This document shows, in pieces, positions 4,050 to 29,747 of a DNA stretch of 64,000 bases. The stretch is taken from NCBI GenBank assembly GCA_031310005.1, contig CM062382.1, positions 2,604,001-2,668,000 of the forward strand, given 5' to 3'. The notes under the pieces were generated by a model. That model was not told where the DNA came from, searched no databases, and was given only the letters and a program-made list of their open reading frames with translations. Origin of the DNA: Dactylellina haptotyla. Its lineage: Eukaryota; Ascomycota; Orbiliomycetes; Orbiliales; Orbiliaceae. The position numbers were made by a program, and so were the translations under genes. Position 1 is the first letter of the stretch. Every line of letters starts with the position of its first letter.

Positions 4050-5190
4050 ATGGTTCAATTATCTAATACTGCGCTAGCGCTTGCAACGACGGTTCTTTTT
4101 GCTCGCAGAAGTGCTCAGTCGTGTCCTCCCATATCTGGGAATATTTTCATCAAACAGGCTGGACTATTCCCTGAGAACTTGGACTGGGATTCGTGCAACT
4201 GCAGACTTTACTTAGGGTATGATTCTGATCTAATAAGTTCGCAATGGTTTTTGGCGTACCAGTTTGCAAATTTTGTGCTAATGTATCTTTCCTAGGTCGC
4301 TTTTTAACGCAACCGGGGTCGAATATAATCCATACACCAACAAAACTCGTGTTATCACGTTCCCCAATGTCTCCTTCGATCCTGACTTCCATATCGGTGG
4401 CGTAGATTATGACTTTCGCAAAAAAGTTGTTTATTTTGGCGCAGATGCTGGTGCACCCTTCAACACCAATGGTCAAGATCTTTCAGGCCCAAACCGGCTT
4501 ATACGATATGACCCCCAGCAAAAGAAAATCCTCTACAATATTGATATGGCGCCATTTCAAAATCTTGTAAAGCTGCAAAATGGTGGTCAATTGGTTAGCG
4601 GCTTCCAGGATATGGCAGAGGACAAAGATGGAGACACATACTTCATCGCCACTTTCGGCAACGCGATTGCGAAGGTCACACCTCGCGGCACAGTTTCTGT
4701 ATACTATGCTCAAAACCCTGTGACCCCTTCAATTGCGGGGTACTCTGGGATATTTTCCATTGGAAACAAACTAGTCATTGCAGATAATTCGATTACCAGT
4801 TTCGTCACCTTTGATACTACCCAGAAACCTGGACGGCCAACAATTGTTGCGCCAAAATGCCAACCCGCAGGGTATACTTTCAGCTGCGACGGATTCTACG
4901 CACCACCCAAGTACGATGGAAAGGTCGCGCTTTGCTCCAATAATGCACTTCAGGGAATCGCAGTTTATAAATCATCCGATAACTGGAAAACTGCTAAATA
5001 CCTGGGTCTTATTCCGAACAACGACCCCGCCGTGGGTAACGGGTTCCCCACGGCCACAGTTCAGATTACAGACTCAATCTACATCAGCGAGGAATATTTC
5101 TTCGGGTCCACGCAGATTCCCGATCTCTTTCCTCTAATCGATATTACCTCTCAGGTACAAAGCATGGTGAACCAGGGTGCTTCTTGTTAA
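4050..5190 (+). CDS. Secreted Tri14/Mala s 1-like beta-propeller protein
   Basis: Two exons, 4050-4216 and 4296-5190, separated by a 79-bp intron (GTATGA...CCTAG, branch TGCTAAT), give 353 residues. The first 24 residues form a secretion signal ending near RRSAQS. The mature start, CPPISGNIFIKQ, followed by the PENLDWDSCNCRLYLG segment and the DFHIGGVDYD and NGQDLSGPN segments, resembles the family that includes the Fusarium Tri14 protein and the Malassezia protein Mala s 1. These are predicted or known six-bladed beta-propellers of the SMP-30/gluconolactonase type. Their biochemical role is poorly defined. Several Asn-X-Ser/Thr sites (NATG, NKTR, NVSF) fit a secreted glycoprotein. Nothing else here resembles a trichothecene cluster, so this is probably a stand-alone paralogue. 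Length agrees with the family. Confidence 0.85.
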
Positions 5191-5867: not shown

Positions 5868-6769
5868 CTAATTGGAATACTTTTCAGCTTCCCAGAGTGT
5901 CCGGCGGATTGCCTGTACTGCAGAACGTAATGCCTGCGGAGACCTCCTGTTTGGGACATTGTGTCCCTCCTTGTGGATAGATACCTGCCTCATCTTGGGT
6001 GTAGAGAGTGCTTCCACAATTGCACTCATTTCCGGACCCAAAGGATCATTATCTGCCCAAATATGAGCACTGGGAATATTTATTTTTGCTCCATATTTTT
6101 CGTCTAGTCTAATGAGCTCGTTCTTACGCAGGTGATCTAAGCTCCATGGGATTCCTGCGCTCAAGAAGACCGCACATTTGAAAGGGCACTGCCAGATATC
6201 TTTCCGATCACTGGCTCGCGTATTGTCGAGCAATTTACCTAGTATTAAGCTTGAAACAAGCGCGCCACCGTGAGAAAATGCTATAAAGCCATCGTAAGGC
6301 GCTTCAACTTCAATGTATCTTTCCAACTGCAAGATTGCTTCGTGCATGCTTTTAGCGTTGAGCGGGTCGTAATAAGCGAAATATTCATCTTCGTCGGAAA
6401 ACATATCACCAAGTTCTATGTTACTCGAGGAATTAGGGTTATTTATCGTCTTTATCTGAAATATAACTCAGTATATGTTACCTGGTGCTTTCGGCCATCG
6501 TACTGTTCCTTCCACAAAATCGTAAATATGCCCGTCCCCTAGTTCAGCTCGGATTGCGGCTGTTTGAGTTCCAATACCTTAGTAATTCAAGACCACTTCA
6601 ATTGTTGAGCAATCTGCATACCTATTTGCGTCGAGAGAACCTGACATAATTTAGATATATGGAGTTTGTAAATATTATTATGTCTGTCAACTTAGTGGGT
6701 AGTAGATACGAAAGTATTATTATTTACCTTAACATTGGTTCCAATTCCATGAAGACACAAAAAACGCAT
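5868..6769 (-). CDS. FSH1-family serine hydrolase, probable trans-acting PKS thioesterase
   Basis: Four exons on the minus strand, 6769-6728, 6640-6622 (only 19 bp), 6559-6482 and 6415-5868, give 228 residues. The first exon encodes MRFLCLHGIGTNVK, the classic start of the FSH alpha/beta hydrolases. The third encodes the YDFVEGTVRWPKAP segment and the fourth the nucleophile elbow AFSHGG. An acid in ADNDPLGP and the histidine in KEGHNVP complete the triad. The usual G-x-S-x-G begins with Ala here. Relatives such as LovG hydrolyse the finished chain from the carrier protein of highly reducing synthases. The gene is divergent from the PKS, with start codons 894 bp apart and CCG/CGG palindromes between them, so release of the PKS product is the most likely job. 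A general esterase is the alternative. Exon phases are consistent; the micro-exon is needed for the family-like segment VLSTQIAAIRAELG. Confidence 0.85.
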
Positions 6770-6992
6770 CTTTGCAGATTGTATAGCATGCAATCAACGG
6801 ATATATTGGTTAAAGTAACACCACGTCGTAACAAAGAGATAGAGAGCTATGAGAAATCAACTTCAAGAAAACTGACTGATGTAGATTGCCTGAAATTCTC
6901 TGGATGAAGTATATAAACCGTGTAATTACCCAAAGCTACTGCGTTGTGCGTAAGATATCCAGCTTGAAGTCTTGTGGAATTTAGATTTTGGA

Positions 6993-7004
6993 CCGAAATA
7001 TCGG
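6993..7004. promoter_or_regulatory. CCG-N6-CGG palindrome (site 1)
   Basis: CCGAAATATCGG. The CCG and CGG half-sites, spaced by six A/T bases, are an everted pair of the triplet that Zn2Cys6 dimers usually contact. It lies 224 bp upstream of the hydrolase start. Confidence 0.5.
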
Positions 7005-7029
7005 CCTGTTATCAACCAAGCAATTCTAA

Positions 7030-7040
7030 CCGAGCATCGG
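7030..7040. promoter_or_regulatory. CCG-N5-CGG near-palindrome (site 2)
   Basis: CCGAGCATCGG, followed by TGCT as at site 3. Spacing is five bases rather than six. Confidence 0.4.
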
Positions 7041-7283
7041 TGCTGAGACTTTAGAACCGGTGTTGGGATTTTGCAAAGCCGATACAAAATGAACAAAATG
7101 CCGACTCACGGCGGACTCGAAACCAGACGGGACACAAAGCAACACAGCCACGGGAAATTTAGCTGCTCACTGGCTGTATGGGAGGCTCTGGTATAGTATT
7201 GTTGCCAGGTTTGACGGCGGTTGAGTTGTATTTATTACGAAAATATATGATGTGATGTGGGTCATTTTACCCACGTTAGGCGG

Positions 7284-7295
7284 CCGATATATCGG
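7284..7295. promoter_or_regulatory. CCG-N6-CGG perfect palindrome (site 3)
   Basis: CCGATATATCGG is a perfect 12-bp palindrome and shares spacing with site 1 and the trailing TGCT with site 2. It lies 369 bp upstream of the PKS start. Confidence 0.5.
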
Positions 7296-7420
7296 TGCTT
7301 TTTAGATAGCACAAAGATATTGCACCGCTGCGGTCTAATACAACCGCCTAACCTCCGCAATTGACAATGCAACATGCCTTTGTGTATTCTGGCCAAGGTT
7401 GGTAATTTTAAATTATTCTT

Positions 7421-7428
7421 CCGATCGG
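7421..7428. promoter_or_regulatory. CCGATCGG palindrome (site 4)
   Basis: The same half-sites with only two bases between. It may be chance or a weaker variant of sites 1-3. Confidence 0.25.
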
Positions 7429-7663
7429 CCTACTTGCCGACAGATGTGATATTCGATATGCGAAGTTATTGCGGAGGTCAAGATCCCTCCGACGAAGCAT
7501 CTTAGTCGCCGACGAATTCAGTCAGCGATTAGAGATATGCAACGAACATAAGCCTTATAAACAGTCACATGCCTCTAATTATAAATTATTTTTGTTTTAT
7601 TATTGTTTTATACAGTCAACCAGATTGATTTAAACTGACGCCGCAAAAATAACAATAGAAGTG

Positions 7664-10600
7664 ATGGTTGGATACACGCCAGAGCAAAGGCCTACGGCGG
7701 CTGAACCCCTTGCGGTGATTGGTTTCGCTTTCAAATTCCCATCTGGAATCGAAGAAACAGAATCTTTTTGGCAGATGATTGTGAACGGATCATCTGGTTT
7801 GAAAGATATTCCGGAAGATAGGTTCAACCTGGGCGCTTTTCGTGAAACAGGAGCCGATGAAACCAGAGTAAGCTAAGATTCTTACCAGCTCCACAATCTA
7901 ATTTGTCTATAGCCATCTATGATGCATGAAATTTCCCCGTTCTATGTTCCTATTGATTGCAAGATTATTAATCGGCATTTAGGGTGAAAAGCCCAAGGGA
8001 TACTTCATCGAAGGCGATATAGCTGCCTTCGACGCGCCATTTTTCTCGATAACCGCAGAAGAAGCATTGGCGATGGATCCCCAACATCGAATTCTTCTCG
8101 AGACATCATATCATGCATTTGAGAATGGTATGTTTAACAGTGTTCGGTTTCTAAAGCAAGCGACTTACATGGTTGCTTCTAAAACTAGCCGGGCTGCCGA
8201 TGGATCAGGTCAGCAATAGTAGAACTTCGGTTCATGTTGGATGCTTATCTCAAGACTACCGAATGATTGGCGCTAGAGATATCGAAAACTCCGCGAAATA
8301 TGCCGCTACAGGTCAGGATATGAGTATATTATCAAATAGACTGAGTTGGTTTTTCAATTTAAAGGGACCCAGTCTTTCCGTGGAAACGGCTTGCTCTAGT
8401 AGCTTAGTGGCCCTAGACGCCGGATGCCAGCTGCTTAGAAACGGTGAGACAAATATGGTAAGGATATTCTTTTGTGTGTGTTTTTCGTGATAAAATAGTG
8501 CTTACAATGATTTTAGGCGCTTATTGCGGGAACAAGTTTGATGCATATGCCTGATTTTTTCGTCCAACTCGACAACATGGGATTCCTTTCTCCAGATAAC
8601 AAGTGCCATAGTTTTGACGCACAGGCAAACGGATATGCACGTGCAGAGGGATTTGGAGTCATCTTGATTAAACGTCTGTCAGACGCTGTTCGGGATGGTA
8701 ATGCAATTCGAGCAGTGATTCGTGCTAGCGGAACCAATTCGGATGGGTATACTCCTGGCCTCACTCAGCCAAATGGAGCATCCCAGCTAGCTTTAATTAG
8801 GGAGACCTATACGAAAGCAAATCTTTCAATGAAGCCAACTCGGTTTTGCGAAGCCCATGGAACGGGAACTACAATCGGTGACCCCATTGAATCTCAGGCA
8901 ATTGGTACTGCCTTTAGTAGCGCGCGGAGTATTGAGGATCCAATATATATGTAAGTATGAAGATTTGTTATTTGAAACTATTTGCTTAAAAGATAAATAC
9001 TAATCGAATAAAAGTGGCGCAATCAAAGCAAACATTGGTCACATGGAAGCAGCAAGTGGAATGGCAGGCATCATCAAAACAATATTAGTGCTTGAGCATG
9101 GAGTTATCCCGCCCATTGCGAATTTGACAGAGCTCAACCCGGATATAGATGACAAATACTACCGGCTGAAGGTATAAATATCCCTGGCATGTAGTTCTTG
9201 AACAGTTTGCTGATTTTGTGATAGTTTCCCGTTGAAGCCAGACCGTGGCCAAGTACTGGGCTGCGACGAGCATCGGTTAATTCATTCGGCTTTGGCGGGA
9301 CGAATTCGCATGTTATTATGGACGACGCATACAATTTTCTAAGAGAAAACGGCCTTAGAGCTCGTCATAATACTCGTCACCTTCCTCCTGCACGACTCGA
9401 TAGAGGGCTCGAAATCTGCGAGGATACGTGCATTAAACGCGAAATATCTGAAAGCCGTTCGGCGACAAGTTCGAAGCCATATCTACTAAAAGTGTCCGCC
9501 GCAGACCGAGATGGAGTCAAGCGCATTGGAGCCTCTCTGGGTGATTACTTTAAGAATTTTGGCAACCATCCGACCAATGAATCTGAAATTTGCCGACAGT
9601 TAGCCACTATCTTGAATAACAAACGAACTTTATTGCCTTGGGCATCATACGCACTCGTCAGCTCCTTGGATTCAATTTCTTCTCTTCGGGATCTGCTTTC
9701 TATACCTCGAAAATCATTTCAAGACCCCGTCATGGCATTCTGTTTCACTGGACAAGGTGCGCAGTATGCACAGATGGGCGTGGGGCTAATGCAATATTCC
9801 CTCTTTGCGGAGAGTATCTCGAGATCTTCAAAATTTCTTACCGATCTTGGCTGTCCTTGGAACCTTGAAGGTATGAAACAAATCTATACATTCTAGAATT
9901 ACTACTAAGTTTTAAATTTAGAGGAATTATATAGGGATGCTGCCACTTCCCGCGTTCATAACACGGATATAGCGCAACCGTTGAGCACCGCGATCCAGAT
10001 CGGTCTAGTAGACCTTTTAGAACGCATTGGATTGAAGCCTGCCATTGTGATTGGTCACTCATCAGGAGAAGTTGCAGCGGCGTAAGTACCCCAAAATCGC
10101 AAAGTTTGGGGATATAATTTATCCAATAGAGCTGATAGATACGTATTCGCATAGTTACTGCAAAGGCGCTATCTGCCAAGGAAGTGCGATGAAAATTGCA
10201 TACTTCAGGGGACTTAGTGGAGCAGAAGCTTCGACTAGTCCACTATTGAATGGAACCATGATGGCCGTGGGCCTCGGTGAGTCTGAAACAACAGCGATGA
10301 TCAGAAAGCTATCATCTCGTGATATCAGCGATATTCATATAGGATGTATCAACAGCCCAACGAGCGTCACTGTATCAGGCGAGGAATATGCTATTGATAA
10401 TCTTAAGGCGATCTTAGACAAAGAGGGCATTTTCGCGCGTAAGCTGAAGGTCTCTTGTGCCTACCATTCTCCACATATCGCAGATGTGGCATATAAGTAC
10501 CTTCCACGTGCGATATCATTGGAACCGCGACACGAAAGCAACGATATTATACGAATGATATCATACCTAGACGGAAAGGAAGTTTCCAGCGAGCGCCTCA

Positions 10601-13600
10601 AGCAAATAGACTATTGGATCGAGAATATGTACTCCCCAGTCAACTTCTTGAAATCCGTAATGGAGATCGATAGGCTGGCGAGTCTTGCGAAAGGGACAAA
10701 GAAGCTTGACCTTAGTCACCGAAAGGGTGCTCTGGTCACGAATATCCTCGAAATCGGACCTCACGCAGCCTTGCGAGGGCCATTACGGGATATAGCAAAA
10801 CAATTCAAATCTATAGGGACAGATGTACAATATAACTCTGCATTAGTTCGAGGGTCCCCAGCATTTGACTCCTTCCTTGACGCCGTGGGTAGTCTTCAGT
10901 GTGCCGGATTCGATATCGATACCTCTTATTTGAATGGTGAAAGCGACATTCAAGAATCAATTACACTTGTCGACCTTCCGGCCTACCCTTTCGCACACTC
11001 CCGTAAATACTGGCACGAAAGCCGACGTAGCCAAAATGAACGATTCCGTCGTCAGAGAACAAGTGAGTTACTTGGGGCTCCAACTCCTGACTCCCAGCCT
11101 TACAACCCGACATGGCGCAACATCTTAAATGAATCCAAATCCGAGTGGATCAAAGACCACAGTGTAAGTCATAACAACCTTGAAATTATACAAAATTAAA
11201 TGCTAATATTTAAATTCAGATTAAACAAAAGTTGGTCTATCCAGCCGCTGGGATGTTAGCGATGGCAATCGAGGCAATAAACCGGCACGCTCAAGCAAAT
11301 TTGAATATTAAACCACTCGCATTTCGCCTTAAGGATGTTGAATTTACCAACACTATAAATATTCCTAATGAGAATTCAGATCTCGAGACCCAAATACACT
11401 TACGCCCCTCAGGAGATGGATCTCTCAAGGCTAGTACTTGGTTCGAGTTTAGTATTTTCTCATGTGAGGACAGCGAGTGGAAAAAGCATTGCAAGGGGCT
11501 AATTCAAGTCGATACTCGACCGTGTGACCGCGATATCCTTCGTTCCCAACATCATCTGCGATCTTCCTCGGATATTACGGATATCAATACCAAGGAGTTC
11601 TATGATAAGATTTGGAAGGCAGGTTACACTTATGGGCCGGCTTTTCAAGGACTCACTCAAATTAAATACTCTGTCCCTGGAGAAATTCGAGGTCAAGTTA
11701 AGACGTACCAGAATCATGCCGCAGATATCCCCAAGCAGCGTGGGTCACGAATGGTGGATCAAGAACATATAGTACACCCGGCAACACTTGATTCTATATT
11801 ACAAATAGCTCTTCCAAATATTATCAAGACATCGACAGGCTCCTTACCGACCATGATACCAACCAAGATAAAAGAAATGTGGCTCTCAAGCACCGGCTTG
11901 AATTCTTCGACAAACACTTCTTTGTCTGTTACGAGCTGGATAGATTCTTGTGGTTATCGTGGTAGCGAGCATACAGTTTCTGTTACCGGGCTTCAAAATG
12001 GCGCTAAACTCCAAGTCATCGGGTACGAGTTAACGAATGTTGCTGATGGCAATGCAACATCATCGACACCAAATATTACGGATCTACATCATTGCTGGGG
12101 GTCTGATTGGAAGGTTATCAGTCCTATTGTGGGTCAAAATATTGACCTTACCAGTTCCATTACCGTGGGGATGCAACCAGTTATCGAGATTCATACCCAC
12201 GAACCTTCTATTGATGTTATTGAGTTAGCAGAAACTCTACGATCACGACTGCAAGCCGAAGGTAGTTCAAATTGCACCATTGTTGATTCAATGAAGCAAA
12301 CTGATTTCTCCAGCGCAGCCGACCTAAGAATAGTACTTTGGGATACAGATAGGGAATCCATATTAGCCCAACTCACCGAAAATAATCTTCGAATTCTACA
12401 ACGATTAGCGAAATGCAAAAATATCCTCTGGCTTCAAACATCTGACCCTAAAACCTTCGAATTTTCTTCTCAACATATAATAGATGGATTATCGCGTGTA
12501 ATTCGGCAGGAAGAAGATATGAAGAATTTTGCGACGCTTTCAGTCACAAGCAGAGATGTTGCAAATCGAGCCAGTGCTATTCTGCGGGTTTGCCAAGCTC
12601 TATTCTCAGAGACTGATTATTCTAGTAACCCACAGACATTTAGAGAGACATGCGGAAAAGAAATCGAGGCCTTGAAACTAAAAGAACTTCCAAGCGCCAC
12701 GCAAGCCGTACAATCTGCGTGCATTAGAGCTGCTCCTAAACGCGTTTCATGGGACACAAATCGTCCCATGAAACTAACCGTTGGGTCATTGGGAATGCTC
12801 GACACTCTGCATTTTACAAAGGATGATCTGTTTACAAACCCTCTCCAAGATAATGAGATAGAAGTTGAAGTGAAAGCAGTTGGCCTAAACTTCAAAGACT
12901 GTTTGATTGCTCTTGGTGGCTTGAATGAAAGTAGCATCGGCAACGAAATTTCCGGCGTGGTAACTCGCATCGGACGAGATACTGAGAATCACGGCCTAAT
13001 CCCGGGGCACCGGGTTTGCGGATTTGCGACGAACGGATATAGGACCTTTTATCGCAATCACGGCCAGTCATTTGCTAAGATCCCTACGCCTCTAACATTT
13101 ACTGAAGCCGCATCGATTCCTATAAATTTCGCAACGGCTTGGCACTCGCTGAAATATGTTGCACGACTGAAGGAGGGTGAGACTGTACTTATTCATTCAG
13201 CGGCTGGTGGAACTGGCCAAGCCGCAATCCAAATTTCTCAATATCTTGGAGCCCAAGTTTTCGCAACCGTCGGAACTGATGAGAAACGGGATTTACTGGT
13301 TAAGCACTATGGAATAAACCCTGAACATATTTTCAATAGCAGAGACCCCGGTTTCGCGGCGGAGATACATCGTTTAACTGGGGACGGCGTCGATGTTGTA
13401 TTCAATTCTCTTTCTGGGGAGCTATTAACTAGTTCCTGGGAGTCTATTGCCCCCTTTGGCCGATTTATCGAAATAGGTAAAAAAGATATCTTAGCACGGA
13501 ATAGCCTACCGATGGCACAATTTGAAAAAAACTGCTCTTTTTGCGCGGTCGACCTTGGCCACATGTTTCAGACACGCCCTAAGCAAGTTACAAAACTAAT

Positions 13601-15108
13601 AACAGAAGTTTTAAAGCTCTTTCAAGAGGGTAGTCTTGGGACAGTAAATCAAGTTCATACATTCGATATCGGGGATATCGTGGAAGCGTTTAGATTAATG
13701 CAAAGTGGAAAGTCGTCGGGGAAAATTGTAGTGGAAACTAATCGTTCCAGCCAGGTTGAAGTAAGTCGAACAAAATCAAATCTTCTTTCAACTTTTAACT
13801 GCGCCTTTTCAACCTCTGATATAGAGGGAACTACGTTTATTTATCTGCATCTGCTTCTAGTTGTCATCCGGTGTATTGTGTTGCTAATAGCTGAATCATG
13901 CTTGTAGGCAATTTTGGCTCCAGAAGAGAAATCTTCGTTTGTTTCGGAGGCCTCTTATATCATTGCGGGTGGGCTCGGAGGTCTTGGCCGTGATATTGCC
14001 CGGTGGATGGCGTCAAGGGGGGCAAAACACCTAGTTCTATTATCGAGGTCGGGGCCACAATCGGAAGCAGCGAGGAATCTCATTTCTGAAATGAGAAACA
14101 AGGGCGTAATTTGTTATACTCCACGTTGCGATATCACGAATCATTGCGAGCTGGAAGCTATCCTCGAAGATCTTACGAAAACCGCCCCTTCAATTAAGGG
14201 TTGCATACAAGCGAGTATGGTCCTAAGAGTAAGTGCATGCAAACACGAGGATCAATCATCTATATTAACTAAAACTATGACAGAGCGCTCTGTTTTCCGA
14301 TATGACCCATTCCGAGTGGAGTGAAGCGACCAGATCCAAAATTTCAGGGAGCTGGAATCTCCACACACTTTTACCAAAAACGATGGATTTCTTCCTTTTT
14401 CTATCGTCCGTTCAAAGTATCATAGGCAGCAGAACCCAGGGTAACTACGCCGCAGCAAATAGTTACCTAGATGCCCTGGCGCAGCACCGTGTATCACTTG
14501 GTCTCAAAGCGGTGTCATTACAGCTGGGGCTGATGGACTCGGATGGATATCTGTCAGAACACCAAGATCAAAAACAGCTAATGTTGGCACAGAATACTTA
14601 TCTTCCAATCTCGCGGCTAGATTTTCATTCTTTGTTAGATTATTATTGTTCCGGTAGTTTACCCCTGCTACAACCAGATACAGCTCAAGTAGCAATAGGG
14701 CTTCGGCTACTACACACAAATCCGGATTTGGATCCTCTAGGGACGAGCTGGGGGAAGAGCAGTTTGTTTGAAGAACTGAGGCGTATTAATGCCGTCTCAG
14801 AAGCTAAAACCAATGGTACATCACCATTCTCTATCGCAAAATCAACGGAGGAGGCAATTAATATTGCGGTAAAAGCTCTGACACAGAGGATTGCGTCAAC
14901 GATAGCAGGTATGGACCCAGAGGAGATAGATGTTGGGAAAGCTGTTCAGTCTTATGGAGTCGATTCACTACAAACAATGGAGTTGAGAAGCTGGTTTATG
15001 AAAGCTTTTAGTTCCGATGTAGCCACATTCGAAATTTTGGGCGCATCGAGTCTATCAGCTTTGGCACAAACTGTGGTTGAGCGCAGTTTGATTCGATTGA
15101 AATGTTAG
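7664..15108 (+). CDS. Highly reducing type I polyketide synthase without methyltransferase (KS-AT-DH-psiKR-ER-KR-ACP)
   Basis: Eleven exons: 7664-7867, 7983-8127, 8189-8457, 8517-8950, 9015-9171, 9225-9870, 9922-10081, 10155-11163, 11220-13760, 13908-14228 and 14284-15108. They give 2236 residues with consistent phases. KS: active Cys about 185 in VETACSSS, His in EAHGTGTT and [22 protein letters not shown] and nucleophile Ser about 665 in GHSSGE. DH: His about 1007 in [12 protein letters not shown], where the fifth motif position is Gln rather than the common Gly, and Asp in [20 protein letters not shown] near 1667. [10 protein letters not shown] near 1876 and [13 protein letters not shown]: Ser about 2190 in GVDSLQ. 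Only about 240 residues separate DH from ER and they lack a SAM-binding motif, so a pseudo-KR is present but no C-methyltransferase. There is no thioesterase or reductase end, so release must occur in trans. Intron 10 (13761-13907) is 147 bp, and its only in-frame stop is its last three bases. Expected product: a reduced unbranched polyketide acid. Confidence 0.93.
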
Positions 15109-15623
15109 TTCAAAATCTTGTGCGATGAAGAGGACGTTGTGTATATGAAATTTATGTATGATCATATCTTAAAACCAAAATTATAAAAAGACCGAATGCT
15201 CCTATTATATCAACATATTAAAATCTAGAGACATGAAATTAGTTCCTGCTTAACTTATCACAAATATGACTTCTTTTGTTCGAAGAAAAAACCAATATTC
15301 CTTTGTGTTCAGTCGCGAAACCCAAATTTGCAGAGAGCTAATAACAAAAACATATACCACCTTTTTTCAAGACTTTCACGAATATTAAGATAGAGTATGA
15401 GGAATCAAGGAGCTCAGAAGCTATATTAATATCAAAGCAGAGTATAGGAGTTGCTGAGTTCAGCTGCAGTTTTATGTAACGCCTTGAAAGTTATCGAGTT
15501 GACTCTAAATGCATTATAAAATCTGGGAACCAATTACTCATCTCTTCAAAAAAAGACTACTTTCTAGACGAGAGACTTAGATAAATTTACGTAATAACGT
15601 CTATGGATGTTCTTTACGGATGT
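15109..15623. other. Intergenic stretch between convergent genes
   Basis: A/T-rich 3' flanks of the PKS (plus) and the FMN oxidase (minus). No gene seen. Confidence 0.6.
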
Positions 15624-17138
15624 TCATATCTCGTCACTAGAAACAAGCGCAGATCTGTTTGATGCTTGGAGATCTGTGACACCCGTCATGCTCATGCTCC
15701 TATCCAGATCAGCTAAGAGACCCATGAAAACCTCCTTTACACCTTCTTTACCTGCTACGGCATAGCCATACATCGTTGGCCGACCTATCAGCACGCCTTT
15801 AGCTCCTAAGCAGAAAGCTTTGAGAATATCAGATCCAGTTCTTGTCCCGGAGTCAAATAGAACACATGTTTCTTGGCCAACCGCGTCTACGATAGGTCGA
15901 AGCATTCTCAGTGAGCCCACTGCTCCATCCAACTGCCTCCCTCCATGATTTGATACAATGACACCATCACATCCCGCCCTTACAGCCATCTTGGCATCTT
16001 CGACGTGTTGTATTCCTTTCACGACTACCGGGCCGGACCAGTTCTTTTTCAAAAATGCTATACGCTCCCTAGATTTTGAGATGTTTTCTATTAGCAAGTG
16101 CCTTGACTTATATGATTGCTCCAAGTAAATCATTCTCTTACCAAGGTTGCTGTGCCCCAGAAAGGATAACTTTAAGCCATTCGCGGCTGGCTAGTGCTAT
16201 GTCATCTTCTATTTCTATATCGTTGGCTTTCTTGAACTTGTCTCTAAAAACTGGATCCGAAAACCCAATTTGGTTTCCGACACCATTGACTAAAGGAAGA
16301 TATCCTAGATCCAGATCCAAGGGTCTCCATCCAGCAGACCAAGTATCTAGTGTTACCACGAGCACACTATATTTATTTTCTCGAGCTCTACGGAGTATAG
16401 AAAGTGTGATATCATCGTCATTCGGCCAGTATAATTGGAACCAACGAGGACCATCTCCACTAGCACTGGCAACCTCCTCAATAGTCGATGAAGCCGCAGT
16501 AGATAAAGTAAAGGGGATTCCTAGCTCAGAGCAAGCCTCGGCAACTTGTTTTTCACCACTAGGGTTAAATATGGATTGAACACCGATCTAAGTGAAAGAT
16601 AAGTCTCTCTATTTAGAAGGGGAGAAAGCAACTTAAAACTGGAGCAGCTTGCTTACTGGGGCCTGGATCAAGGGGGTCGCGTATTTCTGTCCGAAGAGTG
16701 TTATCTCCAATTTCCTTTGCGAGGCATCAGCCATTGGGCGAGGAAGCAACTTCCCACTCCGATTAGCATTTTTTTTTTTTTTTTAATCAATTATCCTTGG
16801 AAGTTGCGAAAATAATTACCTGCCATCGTTTAAAAGCAGCACGGTTGGCATCCTGGGTTTCTAATGAGCCTGCCCCTCCTATTACTTGAGACAATAAGCA
16901 AAATTAGAAGATCTTCGAAGGCTAGGTTTGCTGTCATACGCTATATTTGGTTTTCTAGGTTGGGCTTACAGTATTTTGCGGCGCGTACCCCAAGGTGTTT
17001 CTTCGCTTGTTCTTCTAGTTTCGATGCGTCGGTGCTCACTCTAGGCACCATGTCCCTGAACATACCATTTCGATAAATTTCATACTGGTATCCACGAACT
17101 CTAGTAAGTATTTTCGTGCAGAATGCTTCTGATGCCAT
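15624..17138 (-). CDS. FMN-dependent 2-hydroxyacid oxidase/dehydrogenase
   Basis: Five exons on the minus strand, 17138-16970, 16884-16820, 16749-16657, 16587-16142 and 16068-15624, give 405 residues. This is the usual size of the lactate oxidase/lactate 2-monooxygenase/glycolate oxidase family. Family marks in order: LIGGAGSLETQDANR, the STAASS strand, WFQLYWPNDDD, VTLDTW, the FMN-binding Lys in VVVKGIQHVEDA, the catalytic His and Arg in SNHGGRQLDG, and the phosphate site FDSGTRTGSDI and LIGRP. Substrate is not predictable from motifs. In this cluster it may oxidise an alpha-hydroxy acid to the keto acid, or do so with decarboxylation. The second intron carries a run of 16 T (16769-16784, plus strand). 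The gene is convergent with the PKS and co-oriented with the acyl-CoA ligase. The weakest junction is the last acceptor, chosen because it alone restores WERIAFLKKNW in frame. Confidence 0.88.
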
Positions 17139-17735
17139 GATGGGAGCGAAATTTTGGAAGTTAATAGATCTCTGTATGCATACGTATGTTTAACAGCACA
17201 AAAAAAACGTACAGTTTTAATCTTGATGCCAAGATATTATTTAAAGTTTGTAAACTCCGACATTTACTAGAGATTCGCCGAGGAAATCGGAGAGTAGACT
17301 GTTTACCAAAAGGTCGGCGGATGGTTGGCAACACACCCTCGGACCCTAGATTTACAGCATTGTCGTGTCTGTCCGACGCGGAGAATATATCCATCCCGAT
17401 ACCTAACTGGGCCAGCTCCCGATTGCGATCTGATCTGACAGCTCGGGGACACCGTGACTTGGATTTTAATTAGTGTCAATATTCGCCATCCGTTAAGAAA
17501 CCGATGTTCTGATCATGATCAATATTAAACTAAATGCTGTCATGATTGTAATATATTCAACAACTTTGAGTTTTTATTCTTGATATAAAAGATTGGTATT
17601 TCTAGAAAATATTCTCTCTAATGAAATAAGCCACCCGGACTGGTTACGATGTATAGCTCTTCGAATTATGATACAGAGATTTAAGATATGCTTCATTACG
17701 GCTGCGATATGGACACTAGTCGTTGTTGAAAGTTA
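17139..17735. other. Intergenic stretch, promoter of the FMN oxidase
   Basis: No gene supported; small frames on both strands look random. A looser CCG-N7-CGG pair occurs near 17278-17290, about 140 bp upstream of the oxidase start. Confidence 0.5.
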
Positions 17736-19938
17736 TTATGCCGATAGAGTCCCGCTCGTCAGATAGTTAATTGAGCCATTTATCGGGCTATTTAGGGGAG
17801 AGTTTATCTTGAACTCCAACCACCGTTCTCCCATCTCCCTCAGTTTATATTTTTCAATCTTTCCGCTCGCTGTTAGAGGTAGTTGAGATAGCCAGAATAC
17901 GTATTTTGGGACACAATTCTTGCTAAGACGCTCTCGTACTAACTCTCGGACCACCCCGGATGTCATAGTCCTCGCAGGTGAACTTTCATGACCATTCCCA
18001 TTGAAACTTCCCAGATTTTCGCGTAGGTCAACTGTTAGTTTGTCATCAGTCATGAGAATGTTCGTTTGTGGATGTGGCACAATGAATGCCGCCACCAGTT
18101 CGCCGTAATAATCGTCCGACAAGCCCACTACCGCTATACTGCTCACAGAATCCTGTTGCAGCAAGATGTTCTCAATTTCTGAGGGATAAATATTCTCCCC
18201 CGCTCGAATAATCGTATCTTTTATCCGGCCGGTTATTTTTATCGTACCATCAACCTGCATGAGAGCCTCATCACCTGTTCTCAGCCAAACTTTTGGGGTT
18301 TGGTGTGCACAGTTTGACTCGGAGGTAGAATCAGTAATCAAGGCCTCTGAAGTTTTCTTCTCGTCCTCCCAGTACCCCTTCATAACCAAGAATCCAGATA
18401 TTAGTAGTTCGCCTCTGCTACCTTTGGGTAGTACCTGATACGGATCGTCCATGGAAACCACTCTCAATTCAGTATGAGGCATGACAGATCCCACAGTGTA
18501 GAAATGTGTCTCATCCTCATGTTCTAATCGTGTCATACAACAGACAGGAGATGATTCTGTCATCCCATAGATGTTTAGTAAGCTTGGCAAATTCAAATCC
18601 TCGTGGATTTTTTTGCGAAGTGAAGGGGCAATTACACTCCCGCCTATTAGTCCCGTCCGGAGTTTTGGGAAGCCTTGTTGATAAAGAGTGCTAGATAAAC
18701 TCAGTAATTAAACTGCAAGCCAACAATAGAACCCTGTGTACCTACCTTTGTGAAATCTCCTCCAATTCTGCAAGAAACATCGTAGGAACGCCATATAGAA
18801 CGGTGGCTTCATAACGTACTAAAGCTTCAAGTACAGCTCTTGGGCTAAAGGTCTCCGATGGTATGATGATAGTACAACCTTGCGTAACGTTAGCTTATAT
18901 TTTCCTTGAGACACCTAGGTTAAGCCCTTTTTCGCCTTAACTTCAGCGTGATATATGGCTATAATTCTGTGATAAAATAGGAGTATCTCTACTAACCGTG
19001 GGTCAATGCTGCTAAGACACCAAGTACTATCCCGAAGCAATGAAAAAGAGGAGGAGCACAGCATATTTTGTCTTCTTTTGTAAGCTTTAAATTTCGTCCA
19101 ACAAGATAAGCGTTATTAAGAATGTTCATATGTGTAAGACAAGCAGCCTTAGGTGCTGACGTTGTTCCTGACGTAAATTGGATATTAATAGTATCCGTTG
19201 ATTTTAGAGTCGGTTGATTGAAAATTTGTCCGAGGTGTTGTTCGAGAGCTTTGTGATACCAAACCGCCGTATGGGGAAAAGGCTCGGTTTCATCCTGGAT
19301 TACTTTATTGGAGTTATTTATAAGCATGATCTCCTTGACAGGGATACCTTCTCGCATCTGCCCATCCAGTATTGCCTGGAAGCGTTCAAACGTAGATATC
19401 GGCTTTTTGAAAGGTGGGCATATTTGAGTGCTGAGTATAAGATAGCTCGCTGAAATATGTTTTAGAGCCCCAAGGAGCTGTAAATCAGTGTATGAGGAAT
19501 TCACTGGCACAGTTATCAATCCCAGCTTTGCACAAGCATACATTATCTATTCGAAATCATCCCAAAGTTTAGCTCTAGAGATCCATAATGTTGTTGTTGG
19601 CTCTAGAGATGTTATAATTACCACAATGTACTCCGCCAGGTTACCGAGGCAGACTACAACCCTCTCCGGTGCTTTGAGGCCCAAATTACTGAAGTATAAC
19701 GCCAAAGCATCGCTCTGTTCGTCAAGTTGCCTATACGTAAGACGGGCGCAGTCTGTCTGGACGGCTACTTCGTTTGGAGAGTAGGCAGCAACTGCAGAAA
19801 TCTGCTCCCCGATAGTGCTTTGTATTAATGGCTCCTAAATTCAATTTAAGTTAGAGGGATATAAATGAGGAAAGGCAATAGTATCGTTTTTGGGGTTCAT
19901 ACATCAGTTGGCCCAGACGCATAGGAAAATTCCAACAT
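17736..19938 (-). CDS. AMP-dependent acyl-CoA ligase
   Basis: Five exons on the minus strand, 19938-19903 (12 codons), 19834-19622, 19546-18997, 18878-18746 and 18690-17736, give 628 residues. ANL-superfamily motifs appear in order: the phosphate loop FTSGTTSAPKA (the usual Gly after the second Thr is Ser), the adenine-binding segment NIYGMTESSP, the WLRTGDEA ribose site, the hinge GRIKDTIIRAGENIYPSE, and the catalytic Lys in PLTASGKIEKYK. The MLEFSYASGPTD start followed by EPLIQSTIGEQ matches fungal medium-chain acyl-CoA synthetases. It would form an acyl-adenylate and then a CoA thioester. In polyketide clusters such ligases activate a starter or the released chain; no NRPS partner is present in the window. 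No clear peroxisomal C-terminal signal; the protein ends TLSA. Dual-substrate specificity cannot be read from sequence. Confidence 0.9.
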
Positions 19939-20180
19939 TTTGATTTACTAGTTAAATTAGGTTGCATCTAGCTGCTATATCGACTTCCTTGCTAGAAGCA
20001 AAGTGAAACTCTTGAATTGAACTCGAATTGGTAATAGGTTGAGACGCAGGATGTGAGCGTTTCAGAAAACTCTCCTTCATATATATTCTTCTTTGGGGAG
20101 GCTAACTAGAAAGTTTGTATTTAAGAAGGTTTCAAATGCAAATGGAGGATGCCGATTAGATCGCCGATGTCCCGCTAACA

Positions 20181-20411
20181 TTATGTACGATCATCTTTGA
20201 ACGCCTGACAGCATCCTACTGCAACTTCATCTAAGAGCTCAATTAAATCTACAACTAGAGTGTTTTGCTCTACGCACATACACGTGGATATAATTGGCAT
20301 AAAATGAATTCGATTGGCTATGGGTAAAAAGTAGCTTGCTTGAGTAGACAGGTTGGCAATATTCCAGCTTGAAAGAGCTATCTGGTTAGTAGGCCTGCGC
20401 AGGTTCTCCAT
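20181..20411 (-). pseudogene. Possible remnant of a pathway regulator or other gene
   Basis: A 76-codon frame has protein-like composition, including ISTCMCVEQNTL and DLIELLDEVAVGCCQAF. The sequence just upstream on the same strand, in another frame, reads SKLKPKKQSAS followed by a Ser/Asp cluster, like the low-complexity linker of a fungal transcription factor. I cannot join the parts with normal splice sites, and there is no Zn2Cys6 motif nearby. Identity is a guess; it may be only a chance frame. Confidence 0.25.
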
Positions 20412-20719
20412 CTCTAATATTCTCCTGGAACTCTAGCGAAATTAGAAAATAGACAGTCAACACTGGATTCGGAGTCGTCGTCGGACATACATGTTGTGGA
20501 CGCCGATTGCTTTTTGGGTTTGAGCTTTGATTTAAAGAGATCGGAGAAAGTCAAGACCCGACGTTTCTAACCGGTGCCGGTGCACACGGCGCTGACGGTA
20601 CTTGTGATTCCGCCCTACACGTAAGGTAAGATTTGCCGAAATGAGGTCTCGGCACAGCGCCATAACTCCGCACTGAAATTTCAACACAATTTCCAGGTGG
20701 TGAATTGCGAATCCTTTTG

Positions 20720-20778
20720 GGTTAGGCTGGTCTCGCAGGCCAGACAACACAAAAATCAGGTTAGCCTGGTCTCGCAGG
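20720..20778 (+). repeat. Two 20-nt direct repeats
   Basis: GGTTAGGCTGGTCTCGCAGG at 20720-20739 and GGTTAGCCTGGTCTCGCAGG at 20759-20778 differ at one base. They lie directly left of the MITE-like element and are G/C-richer than their surroundings, so both may be parts of a larger decayed insertion. Confidence 0.6.
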
Positions 20779-20790
20779 TTGGGCCACAGG

Positions 20791-20856
20791 TAGTCTCGTT
20801 GCCCGCCCCGCCGGCTGTCCATAACTGGGCAACACCAGCGTCTGGCAACGAGACTA
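20791..20856. mobile_element. 66-bp MITE-like element with 13-bp TIRs and 9-bp flanking repeats
   Basis: TAGTCTCGTTGCC (20791-20803) and its exact complement GGCAACGAGACTA (20844-20856) bound 40 bp. They are flanked immediately outside by identical GGCCACAGG (20782-20790 and 20857-20865). A terminal inverted repeat plus a 9-bp direct repeat is the layout of a non-autonomous element of Mutator type, whose target duplications are commonly 8-11 bp. An inner pair GTTGCCC/GGGCAAC (20799-20805, 20827-20833) could fold further. Alternatively it is a fragment of a longer palindromic repeat. No copy elsewhere in the window was noticed. Confidence 0.55.
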
Positions 20857-21242
20857 GGCCACAGGATTATAGTGTCGGCAAGCCTACAACGCAAGGCCTG
20901 TTCCGCTAGACAAGGTGGTCGGTGGCTGGCTCAGTTGGTTTACGAGACATGTCAAAGAGATCGGCTTCTGGAGTTTTGTTAGCACCCCTTTTTGAGGCGA
21001 GAAATATCAATTTCTGGAAAACTAGTGGCATTTGATTTAATGGTGTAATATCGACAACTCTTGATGAGATGAGAAGTTGTTAGACAAACCCACTCCACCT
21101 GGCCGCACCGAGCTTAACCCTAACTAGCAATATTCACAAAAAAAGGAAATAATATCTATCAGAAATAGCGTAGACCCAAAACTCCACCGATGCCTGATCC
21201 TGTCTATCATAAAACTCCTTCATGGTTAATTCGCCGAGATCA

Positions 21243-22602
21243 TCAAGAATGGCCCTCGATTTGTTTGGAGACATATGGCTCCTCAAGAAAAGCTTCTTCA
21301 TCATCGCTCAGTTCCTTTCCTTGAGCAGAGAGAGCGGCCTCTATCCGCTTGATGCTTGAAAGGCCGATTATTGGAGAAACGCAGCGTTTGTTAAGCCATG
21401 CCAAACTGACATCGGTCATGGACCAATTCTTTTGAGCGGCAAGCGTTGCAACTCGGGTAATGATCTCTCTATCCGCCTCGCTCTGTCCGTAAGAGAACCT
21501 TGGGTTGCTTGAATCGTCCGCCGTTCTTGGAGAGCTTCCGTATGCATTTGGCACACATGCCAAATGCCCAGAGGCGAGTGGCGCCCACTTCATGAATGAA
21601 AGACTTGATTAACACCATCGAATACACTATCATTGTTGATGAAACTTACGGGTAATAATCCTATTTTATTCTCCTTACAAAATTTGTTCACCTCTCGCTC
21701 TTCTTCCCGATACAGCAGATTATAATGATTCTGCATAGACACAAATTTCGTCCAACCGTTCCTCTCCGCTGTAAACTGCAAAGTAGCGAGCTGATAAGCC
21801 CACATCGAACTTGCGCCGATATATCGAACCTTCCCCATGGTAATAAGATCGTGGAGGGCCCTCATAGTTTCTTCTGGTGGTGTAAAGGGATCATATCGAT
21901 GAATTTGCAAAAGATCGATGTAGGAGGTACCCAGGCGACTTAAAGACTGATCCACAGATTCAAATATGCTTTTTCTAGAGAGTCCTATAGATAGTCAACC
22001 CCAAGGCTAGAAATTAGTTGGGCTACATTCCCCCTTCTCCTATTGGATACGATGTTTCTTACCGAATTGATTAACATGATCTTTACTTTGAGACGCTTCT
22101 TTTGTCATAAAAGGAATCCCTTCGTCGTGCCCTTCTGCCATAACTCTTCCAACCTTAGTCATAAGGACTACCTTTCGACGTGGAATTTCATAGTGCCGAA
22201 GTGCTTGACCTATCAGCCGCTCTGAGGCGCCGTTAGAATAAACATTGGCGGTGTCAAACTATTGAAATAAAAATAAATAACTGCCCGTAATTTCGATTTT
22301 CTTTGTGCAAAGCTGATAGTTGTGGACTTACAGTGTTGATCCCAGCGTCAAGTGCTGCCCGTAGCAATGGAAGTGCCTGGATAAGATAGGATTTAGTCGT
22401 CTTCTATTGAGAATAAATGTTTTCGGGCAAACCGAACCTTCTCGTGATCAAGAACCCAGTTCCACCATGATGGACTACCAATTCCCATGCAACCCATGAT
22501 AGGGTTCGAGACCATCAAACCACCAAGTCTTCTATATTGAACCCGTGTTTCCTTGATAGATTGGACGAACCTCTGTGGTAGATTGGCAAATGGTCCGATC
22601 AT
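21243..22602 (-). CDS. Aldo-keto reductase
   Basis: Five exons on the minus strand, 22602-22438, 22376-22332, 22258-22063, 21984-21650 and 21587-21243, give 361 residues. The aldo-keto reductase tetrad is visible: Asp and Tyr in [17 protein letters not shown], Lys in VVLMTKVGR, His in [10 protein letters not shown]. The cofactor-side segments [25 protein letters not shown] and [16 protein letters not shown] are also present. It is an NADPH-dependent soluble oxidoreductase of the Yajo/YakC-like kind, with a (beta/alpha)8 barrel. Position downstream of, and co-oriented with, the ligase suggests it belongs to the cluster and reduces a carbonyl of the product or a precursor. A stand-alone detoxifying reductase is the alternative. 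All exon phases agree and each intron has standard ends (51-78 bp range for most). Confidence 0.9.
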
Positions 22603-24560
22603 CCTTGCTGGTTCCCATTACTTTTTGTAAATTTTATTAGGGTTGTTGAAAGCTGGTATAGCTATTGGCTATCTGAACATTGAAATATCTCAGAATCATA
22701 TGGATATTTAATCTTTGGTGTATATGTAAGTATTTATAGACGAATTCACTACATCTGTCTAAATTCTAGCAAGAGAGTCGTGTCTCATATGCGGAGGATA
22801 GGTTCGGGTCCCAGGGTGGACTATAAATATTAAAGCTCTTTCCGACTTGCCACACCACTTTATAATTGTATCGGGGATAGTGATTCTAGGCTCTTTCCAA
22901 CTGGTATACAGGCAAGCTTAGTCGGCAGAGCAAGTATTCGGCATTCCAAATTTCCGGATATTGTGAGCTCACTATAAATATGAATCTAGATATCAAAACT
23001 AGAAACTAGTCGCGTGCAAATTGTATTCACGGATACTCTACGATTGAACTCATGAAAACCAATTTTCCATGACATATAAACGTATGAGTTCGAAATATTT
23101 TAGCTTCTTGAGAGGTTTTCATTCCAGCCAGATATTGGATTAAATTTGGAAATTCTAAGAAACTGAGTTTCCTCAAGCGTTATCCTTGCTTAAGATCTTC
23201 TTCTATAAGCTTTTAGATCGAGCTATACAGGCAATTTGTTGGTTGCACTCCATTTCCGCCTCGACATAATTCAACTGCCCCAAGCACATAAAGTACCTAT
23301 AAATACTTCAGTAGTCACTATTATTTTTATCTTCGACTATAGCCTACAGGCCGTTAAACCTTGCAAACGCGATATCTGGGATGAATTATTCTATTGGCGT
23401 CACAAATCGAAAATTATCAGTGGATTTCTAGACCATGTATCTCAAAAATTCTCAAATGCCTTTTCGTTGTACATACTTAGTATCTTCTAGAAGTTGATTT
23501 GCTATGACGTCACTTTACAACCTCTAGCGTGACGGTGCCTGAAGGTTCCGACTAGACCAAATGCAAAAATCTGGTGGCGCGACTAGGCATATAGCCTCTT
23601 CGGTCAGGATTCCCTCCGCCGACTTCGTGTCGCCGCCTCCGATCGCCTTGTCTACCGCGATATCGGAGGTTATTTTCGATTAAGCCACGAGGTTGAGAGA
23701 CACCGGGTTAGAAATGATTTTTTAGAACCAAGTGTACGCGAAAGGACAGCCGGTCACGACAGGCAGTGAGCGGTTCGGCAGATAGCTCGTCGGGGTCAAG
23801 TGGGTAAAGCCGGCGGAAGACATATTAGTTTTGGAAACCTTCGGCGAGATCCGGGATATACTCGGTAGAAAACAAAAGACTACTCGGAAGTGATTAGGCA
23901 CTCGATAGAAAGATGGTCCGAGGCGCGTTCCAATTGGCAACACAAATATACGTGATCAGCTTTGCTACTAGCAAGTGAAATCAGGGAGCAGAGGTAATAC
24001 AGCGTGGATCAATGGAATCAAGTACAAACAAACCAGCCATCTAAAATTACCTATACAACTCGCCTTTATATACAACTGATATTGATATACATATAACTAA
24101 ACCGCAGTCGCCATCCAAGGGTTCCGACTTTTTAGGCGAGACGTCAAGATCTGCAAGATGAGCCTTTTTGTGCGTTAACGTGTGGCATTTTTCGAGCTGC
24201 GCCTAGCCGTTTGGACTATGTCGTGACAACCATTATATATAAGATTATTATGCATTAAAACCAACGAAATATTCTTATTTTCATAAGTCAACTGAATATG
24301 TTAAGGCTGTGAAACATTTTGCGAACTTTTCGAATATCTAACTGGGCGTAATATCTAGTAAAGTAATTATAACAACCAGAATTTGCATCTATTCACCTAC
24401 GATTTGATACTTCTAATCGATTGATACGAGACTCGAGTAAGACAGAGCGAATGGGACATCCCTTTTCCTCGTCTTATAGTCTTAAATGAATATATATTGC
24501 ATACGCAAATCAATATAAGACACAGCGTCTAGATTATAGTGATTATACAAGCCACAAGCA
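22603..24560. other. Intergenic stretch with a G/C-richer island
   Basis: No gene supported in 1.96 kb. The first part is A/T-rich and is the promoter of the reductase. From about 23560 to 23960 the base composition rises in G and C, with CGATATCG and CCGAG-type motifs. No frame is convincing. It may be an insertion relic (for example a decayed LTR), but I found no terminal repeats. Confidence 0.4.
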
Positions 24561-29341: not shown

Positions 29342-29747
29342 GGTTGTAACTTGCTGGGTGCAAAGCTTGAGGGCTGCCGCTATTTTTTATCCACCTAGTA
29401 AATGTTGTCGAAATGCGTATCTCGTTTCCTTATGCCTCTATCGCGTTTTTAACTTTTGCATGATATTTATGTTGCTTTGCTACCCCTCAGTTTGTTCTTC
29501 CACCCAAAATACCTACCCTTTCTGGTAAAACACCCTTAACAAACGAGATATAGGACCCCCTTGTCTTATTTTTGGCTTGCATTGGGCATCTTGCGAGCTC
29601 GGCATGCCGACAAGTTCATGAACCTTTAGGTACTAGAAGGGCTTACATATTGTAGCGCTTTTTATATCACAAAAATCAGAAAAATTCGCCCGAAATCATA
29701 AAATGCATGGTCTATGTTACAACAATACAACCGCAAATACCAAGGCT
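29342..29747. other. Intergenic stretch, promoter of the STAND gene
   Basis: Upstream of the STAND start and downstream of the transporter stop, both minus strand. No gene seen. Confidence 0.6.

What the first reader, a model, noticed from the sequence alone, without database searches (positions are those of the whole stretch)
5868..22602. Compact cluster around a methyltransferase-free reducing PKS with its own releasing hydrolase
Read directly: FSH hydrolase divergent from an 11-exon KS-AT-DH-psiKR-ER-KR-ACP synthase, then FMN 2-hydroxyacid oxidase, acyl-CoA ligase and aldo-keto reductase, with no other intact gene between. Known: LovG-type FSH hydrolases release chains from reducing PKSs, and ligases re-activate acids. 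Inference: the product is a reduced unbranched acid, activated as CoA ester and modified at an alpha-hydroxy/keto position. I do not recognise this exact gene set, and there is no P450 or NRPS.
Basis: partly seen in the sequence, partly recalled or inferred. Interest (0 to 1): 0.7.

Follow-up and report, generated by a model that had tools for sequence, protein, structure and literature searches.

The report
Fungal polyketide cluster with decayed twin
Five neighbouring genes in a nematode-trapping fungus look like a small assembly line for an unknown polyketide, and the same genome carries four sister versions of its core, one of which still holds broken remains of two of these genes.

Summary
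Five intact, intron-rich genes lie at 5868-22602: FSH hydrolase, 11-exon methyltransferase-free reducing PKS (2236 aa), FMN 2-hydroxyacid oxidase, acyl-CoA ligase and aldo-keto reductase.

New here: the PKS is one of five paralogues in the genome, each near an FSH gene; these take 5 of the 7 FSH places found. At one sister locus (chromosome 3) reductase and FSH survive, oxidase and ligase remain only as fragments, and the PKS has lost DH and ER motifs. The other three carry a different shared accessory set. So the five-gene set was most likely inherited as a unit, one of two accessory types on a common PKS-FSH core.

The oxidase is lactate-2-monooxygenase-like, with Gly where lactate oxidase has Ala, so oxidative decarboxylation is as likely as keto-acid formation. 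Product, expression and reaction order are unknown. Ordinary kind, unusual combination.

The parts
5868..6769 (-). FSH-type serine hydrolase, 4 exons (6728-6769, 6622-6640, 6482-6577, 5868-6415), 234 aa; proposed chain-releasing thioesterase
   Evidence: gene model; PF03959 FSH1 80.4 bits; one FSH gene near each of the five paralogous PKSs
6770..7663 (.). shared divergent promoter region of FSH and PKS
   Evidence: between the two start codons
7664..15108 (+). reducing iterative type I PKS, 11 exons, 2236 aa: KS 14-388, AT 575-843, DH 977-1286, psi-KR 1330-1474, ER 1552-1846, KR 1870-2047, ACP 2161-2229; no methyltransferase domain
   Evidence: model; Pfam; active-site motifs
15624..17138 (-). 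FMN-dependent 2-hydroxyacid oxidase, lactate-2-monooxygenase type, 5 exons, 405 aa
   Evidence: PF01070 378 bits; full-length match to lactate 2-monooxygenase 6dvh, 286 bits
17736..19938 (-). AMP-forming acyl-CoA ligase, 5 exons, 628 aa
   Evidence: PF00501 275 bits and PF13193 53 bits; best NCBIfam match 'fatty acid CoA ligase family protein' 428 bits, below that model's cut-off of 832
21243..22602 (-). aldo-keto reductase, 5 exons, 361 aa
   Evidence: PF00248 218 bits; sister gene at C3:92440-93847, 293/360 aligned residues identical
20726..20859 (.). short dispersed repeat pieces in the ligase-reductase gap (probably not part of the cluster)
   Evidence: 34 matches besides itself in the own genome, a lower bound

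Best explanation
A five-gene biosynthetic cluster for an unidentified, unmethylated, reduced polyketide in Dactylellina haptotyla. Proposed mechanism: the PKS builds the chain from malonyl units (inferred); the divergently transcribed FSH hydrolase frees it as an acid (inferred from family and from FSH-PKS pairing at five loci); the aldo-keto reductase reduces a carbonyl (inferred); the ligase re-activates the acid as a CoA thioester (inferred); the FMN enzyme oxidises a 2-hydroxy acid, either to the keto acid or, like lactate 2-monooxygenase, with loss of CO2 (inferred). Reaction order is not known. Because the chromosome 3 sister lost oxidase and ligase but kept reductase and FSH, these two probably do not depend on oxidase and ligase. 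The cluster is one of two accessory types on a PKS-FSH core that multiplied to five copies in this genome.
For: Intact genes and domains. Five PKSs form one clade against four other PKSs of the genome (100/100): KS 67-80% identical within the five, at most 48% to the others compared; no methyltransferase match in the DH-ER stretch of any of the five. Five of seven FSH places lie near these five PKSs. Chromosome 3 sister: reductase 293/360 identical, FSH, and collinear fragments of oxidase (C3:81755-82172) and ligase (C3:83201-82865) beyond its PKS. Best single fragment scores exceed all 200 Markov-resampled sequences of C3:80900-90300 (oxidase 26.6 bits against at most 24.3; ligase 37.4 against at most 28.9); reversed proteins find nothing at E<=2, the oxidase paralogue of C1 nothing at C3, the ligase paralogue one weak match there (E 0.2). 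Breaks between the oxidase fragments span the places of the window gene's introns 1 and 2. Fourfold sites, window against C3: PKS 365/515 changed, close to the 0.74 expected at saturation; reductase 75/129, somewhat lower: an old duplication. Oxidase: Gly in the APIGV motif as in lactate 2-monooxygenase, Ala in lactate oxidase.
Against: No expression, metabolite or enzyme data. Three of four paralogous loci have none of oxidase, ligase or reductase at E<=0.001 in the 27 kb fetched around each. The window and C3 PKSs do not come out as sisters, though that grouping is not rejected (AU p 0.08), so the shared accessory genes need either loss in the other lineage or transfer between loci; the reductase copies are closer to each other than the PKSs are, in protein (0.81 against 0.52) and at fourfold sites (0.58 against 0.71), which transfer would also explain. 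The oxidase fragments are short and, against all 111 kb of the four loci, only moderately significant (E 0.004); the same query has chance-level matches at C2 (E 0.30 and 1.2). The publication says that a CBS 200.50 protein similar to clusters 2.1, 3.1, 4.2 and 4.3 has a cMT domain, which I do not find in these five. No hydroxylase that would supply an alpha-hydroxy acid, no transporter and no regulator among the five genes.
Confidence: 0.72

Rival explanations
1. Only FSH and PKS (perhaps with the reductase) form the pathway; oxidase and ligase are metabolic neighbours that happen to lie next to it.
For: FSH and PKS are the only pair kept at all five loci; three loci lack the other three genes. 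Sister copies of oxidase (C1, 42-46% per piece, in a 7 kb stretch without a match to the other four genes) and ligase (C3:3.71 Mb) exist elsewhere.
Against: Fragments of both genes, closer to the window copies than to those paralogues, lie beside the chromosome 3 PKS: chance adjacency would have had to be there before the duplication.
Confidence: 0.15
2. The FMN enzyme does not act on an alpha-hydroxy acid but as an aromatising or dehydrogenating oxidase on a later intermediate, as FUB9 does in fusaric acid biosynthesis.
For: The fusaric acid cluster also combines a PKS (FUB1), a serine hydrolase (FUB4) and an FMN-dependent dehydrogenase (FUB9), which performs the last oxidation in the proposed pathway (passages of PMC6738028, PMC10967133). 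No alpha-hydroxylase is encoded among the five genes.
Against: The Lys, His and Arg of the 2-hydroxyacid oxidase active site (roles recalled) align with lactate 2-monooxygenase. None of the five window genes resembles FUB3, FUB5, FUB7 or FUB8 by family. FUB9 itself was not available for comparison.
Confidence: 0.25
3. The FMN enzyme chiefly supplies hydrogen peroxide or clears lactate-like acids during nematode killing, outside polyketide chemistry.
For: The family includes lactate oxidases (peroxide formation recalled); the fungus feeds on nematodes.
Against: Gly rather than Ala at the position that separates the monooxygenase from the oxidase (mutational meaning recalled); physical linkage kept as fragments at chromosome 3.
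Confidence: 0.07

Closest known systems
Fusaric acid (FUB) cluster of Fusarium
   Same: PKS + serine hydrolase + FMN-dependent dehydrogenase in one cluster (passages of PMC6738028, PMC10967133)
   Different: FUB has amino-acid genes, an NRPS-like enzyme, a transporter and regulators; the window has an acyl-CoA ligase and aldo-keto reductase and none of those among the five. No sequence comparison with FUB proteins was possible.
PKS BGCs of D. haptotyla YMF1.03409 (2.1, 3.1, 4.2, 4.3, 8.3, 10.2; antiSMASH, PMC10580851)
   Same: Same genome; the window PKS is probably 4.2 (not verified); the authors note that two proteins of CBS 200.50 BGC 151.1 resemble 2.1, 3.1, 4.2 and 4.3
   Different: The passages and sections I read (15-17) give no gene-by-gene description, no accessory types, no decayed twin and no product; the supplementary tables were not open to me
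LovG-type FSH hydrolases releasing reducing PKS chains (recalled)
   Same: Single FSH-domain serine hydrolase divergent from a reducing PKS without its own thioesterase match
   Different: Release not shown here; no LovG sequence compared
Lactate 2-monooxygenase (PDB 6dvh; organism Mycobacterium recalled)
   Same: Full-length 286-bit match, Gly in the APIGV motif, Lys, His and Arg of the active site kept
   Different: Fungal, inside a polyketide cluster; substrate unknown. The top-scoring PDB entries by total bits are tandem L-lactate oxidase constructs whose score sums several stretches

Membership tests
Highly reducing iterative type I PKS | KS-AT-DH-ER-KR-ACP in one chain with intact active sites | tested here: met
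   the Gly of the DH HxxxGxxxxP motif is replaced by Gln
Highly reducing iterative type I PKS | C-methyltransferase domain (common, not required) | tested here: not met
   no methyltransferase domain at E<=0.001 nor at E<=1 in the DH-ER exon
Highly reducing iterative type I PKS | iterative synthesis of a reduced chain | not testable with these tools
   needs expression and product analysis
PKS-releasing FSH hydrolase (LovG-like) | FSH1 domain with Ser-Asp-His residues | tested here: met
   PF03959; serine in FSHGG, aspartate in WADND, histidine in EGHNVP read in the sequence (residue roles recalled)
PKS-releasing FSH hydrolase (LovG-like) | genetic linkage to a PKS without thioesterase | tested here: met
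   5 of 5 paralogous PKS loci; at C3 it lies about 9 kb beyond the PKS end. Absence of a thioesterase domain was tested in the window PKS only
PKS-releasing FSH hydrolase (LovG-like) | releases the PKS chain | not testable with these tools
   enzyme assay needed
Lactate 2-monooxygenase subfamily | full-length similarity and Gly at the position where oxidases have Ala | tested here: met
   of four paralogous places in this genome C1 has Gly, C3:631k and C9 have Ala, the C7 piece does not cover the site
Lactate 2-monooxygenase subfamily | oxidative decarboxylation of a 2-hydroxy acid | not testable with these tools
   enzyme assay needed
Fusaric acid type cluster | amino-acid arm (FUB3, FUB5, FUB7) and NRPS-like FUB8 | tested here: not met
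   absent among the five cluster genes and the flanking ORFs at 1104-2648, 4282-5190 and 24561-26282; other ORFs were not tested in Pfam
Biosynthetic gene cluster | co-expression of members | not tested
   no expression data could be reached

The most novel reading that the evidence does not exclude
The lactate-2-monooxygenase-like enzyme shortens the released or re-activated polyketide acid by one carbon through oxidative decarboxylation, a tailoring step I know of in no fungal polyketide pathway (from recall), and the genome maintains five copies of one PKS-FSH core with two exchangeable accessory sets as a way of diversifying products in a nematode-trapping lineage.
Probability: 0.17. Interest if true: 0.62.

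Novelty: new variant of a known kind. Interest (0 to 1): 0.42.

Why it matters
It shows, inside one genome, a polyketide core multiplied to five and split into two accessory types, with one copy caught in decay. This gives a natural test of which tailoring genes belong together and a short list of clusters to delete in a fungus whose polyketides have not been tied to genes in the papers I saw. If the FMN enzyme decarboxylates, it would be a new way to make chain-shortened polyketides.

Tried and rejected
Chance assembly of ORFs: rejected, the main family of each of the five proteins passes its Pfam cut-off. A dead PKS in the window: rejected, motifs present. A solved relative of the FSH protein: none at E<=0.001. 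A regulator in the window cluster: the regulator-like ORFs shared by C2 and C3 (31.9% over 116 aa; an upstream exon at C2 has a cysteine-rich Zn2Cys6-like motif, recalled) have no match in the window below E 0.5; Pfam gave nothing for the two main ORFs; other kinds of regulator were not searched. Recent duplication of the reductase: not supported, fourfold sites 75/129 changed, though fewer than for the PKS. Promoter motif: k-mer counts gave mostly A+T-rich words; CCGA/TCGG is 12.0 per kb in four cluster promoters against 7.5 per kb in most of the rest of the window, chosen after looking; at the paralogous promoters it is 7.2-11.6 per kb against 6.1-7.0 for the whole loci. Only a hint. One KS place (C7:1716821) was not compared, and one (L004, C1) was left out of the tree as distant (32% at most). 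Orthologues in other fungi could not be searched: this genome has no relatives in the tool and the other collections hold prokaryotes, viruses and plasmids. An rRNA search of the genome did not complete; identity came from contig lengths instead. Literature: searches showed no paper describing this gene set. Some listings were cut (20 of 23, 15 of 946, 20 of 21), I judged by titles and abstract starts except for the four papers named below, and only the held open-licence library was searched.
Full report
WHAT IS THERE. The window holds five intact genes at 5868-22602. The PKS (+ strand, 7664-15108) has 11 exons and 2236 residues. Around it on the other strand lie an FSH hydrolase (5868-6769), an FMN 2-hydroxyacid oxidase (15624-17138), an acyl-CoA ligase (17736-19938) and an aldo-keto reductase (21243-22602). 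Pfam confirms the main family of each. No methyltransferase domain is found in the PKS. The models were made by hand from splice signals and family knowledge; no RNA supports them.

WHERE IT COMES FROM. Contig C1 of the window's genome is 7,783,607 bases and C11 is 249,811. The first figure is the longest sequence of the Dactylellina haptotyla YMF1.03409 assembly, and 39,806,839 minus 249,811 is its published size, 39,557,028. The window is therefore from this nematode-trapping fungus, by inference from lengths. Its authors report nine PKS clusters by antiSMASH and name six PKS clusters, 4.2 and 4.3 among them, that the older CBS 200.50 assembly lacked. The sections and passages I read do not describe the genes of this cluster. 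The two C4 KS places at 2.61 and 3.61 Mb suggest that the window is 4.2; this is not verified. The authors say that a CBS 200.50 protein resembling 2.1, 3.1, 4.2 and 4.3 has a cMT domain. I find none in the DH-ER stretch of any of the five paralogues, at E<=1 (one unrelated chance match, an RNA-methyltransferase PUA domain at E 0.096, fell in an ER).

A FAMILY OF FIVE. One search gave 27 KS matches, which I count as 11 places. Four of them are paralogues of the window PKS, on C2, C3, C8 and C10. KS identities within the five are 67-80%; at most 48% to four other PKSs of the genome and 32% to a further, distant KS place; one place (C7) was not compared. On KS plus AT the five form a clade with 100/100 support against four other PKSs; C2 and C10 are sisters (99/99), the remaining order is weakly supported. 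Seven FSH places were found in the genome; five lie near these five PKSs. At C2, C8 and C10 the FSH gene is upstream on the same strand, in the window it is divergent, at C3 it lies about 9 kb beyond the PKS end. The paralogous PKSs were read as exon pieces aligned to the window protein, not as full gene models; the C8 row holds two stops, which may be read-through introns.

TWO ACCESSORY TYPES AND A DECAYED TWIN. At C3 the reductase is present (293/360 identical) and, between PKS and FSH, collinear fragments match the oxidase (residues 4-96, three pieces) and the ligase (residues 382-577, three pieces, with stops). The best fragment scores exceed all 200 Markov-resampled sequences of that stretch; reductase and FSH, whose genes lie outside it, do not. 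Reversed proteins find nothing at E<=2, the oxidase paralogue from C1 finds nothing at C3, and the ligase paralogue finds one weak match there at E 0.2. Searched against all 111 kb of the four loci the oxidase match is E 0.004 (two of its three pieces) and the ligase matches about 1e-4; the window oxidase also has chance-level matches at C2 (E 0.30, 1.2). The ligase remains are the firmer. The gaps between oxidase fragments span the places where the window gene has its first two introns. The C3 PKS has Tyr for the DH histidine and a broken ER cofactor motif, while KS, AT, KR and ACP motifs are kept; its ER scores 27 bits against ADH_zinc_N, the other four 52-66. The other three loci (27 kb each) have no oxidase, ligase or reductase at E<=0.001. 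They share a CMD-like gene (64-67% identical among them; Pfam run on the C10 copy) and an EthD-like gene (Pfam run on one C10 exon; the C2 copy was matched through the neighbouring exon, 80%), and C8 and C10 share an SDR (Pfam run on the C8 copy). I read this as one core with two accessory types, the window being the only complete copy of its type. The alternative, that accessory genes moved between loci, is not excluded: window and C3 PKSs are not recovered as sisters, though that grouping is not rejected (AU p 0.08), and the reductases are more alike than the PKSs.

HOW IT PROBABLY WORKS. Shown: gene content, motifs, linkage. Inferred: PKS builds an unmethylated reduced chain, FSH releases it, the ligase re-activates the acid, the reductase and the FMN enzyme adjust oxidation level. 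The FMN enzyme matches lactate 2-monooxygenase over its full length (286 bits) and shares its Gly in APIGV; lactate oxidase has Ala there, as do two paralogues in this genome, while the C1 paralogue has Gly. From recalled mutational work on that glycine, decarboxylation is a serious possibility. It remains a guess for an unknown substrate. No gene in the set would make an alpha-hydroxy acid. The fusaric acid cluster, with PKS, serine hydrolase and FMN-dependent dehydrogenase, shows that such an enzyme can also act as a final oxidase on a quite different intermediate.

VERDICT. A complete polyketide cluster of a known general kind with a combination of tailoring genes I did not find described (searches; held library only, some listings cut). 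The five-fold family with a decayed twin is the most interesting part and strengthens the claim that these genes belong together. Function and product are open.

Noticed in passing
20726-20859: Short dispersed repeat pieces between ligase and reductase; the search listed 34 matches besides the query's own place, in some places as the same pair of pieces.
   Followed up: partly
C3:83418-84948 and C2:1303868-1305557: Related regulator-like genes at two paralogous loci (main ORFs 31.9% over 116 aa, upstream exons 58% over 48 aa); no match in the window below E 0.5.
   Followed up: partly
L041:1124-3736 (C3:77124-79736, PKS): DH histidine replaced by Tyr and ER cofactor motif broken in an otherwise open PKS stretch: decay or a new, less reduced product.
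   Followed up: partly
C8:518479-520014: Long ORF near the C8 PKS with an acyltransferase-like HxxxD motif (motif recalled, no family search).
   Followed up: no
24561-30644: Minus-strand ORFs next to the cluster: a TPR-bearing ORF at 24561-26282 and a sugar-transporter-family ORF at 29748-30644 (Pfam); between them an ORF at 26275-28347 with NACHT-like motifs (recalled).
   Followed up: no
cluster promoters 6770-7663, 17139-17735, 19939-21242, 22603-24400: CCGA/TCGG 55 in 4593 bases against 425 in 56884 of the rest; picked after looking.
   Followed up: partly
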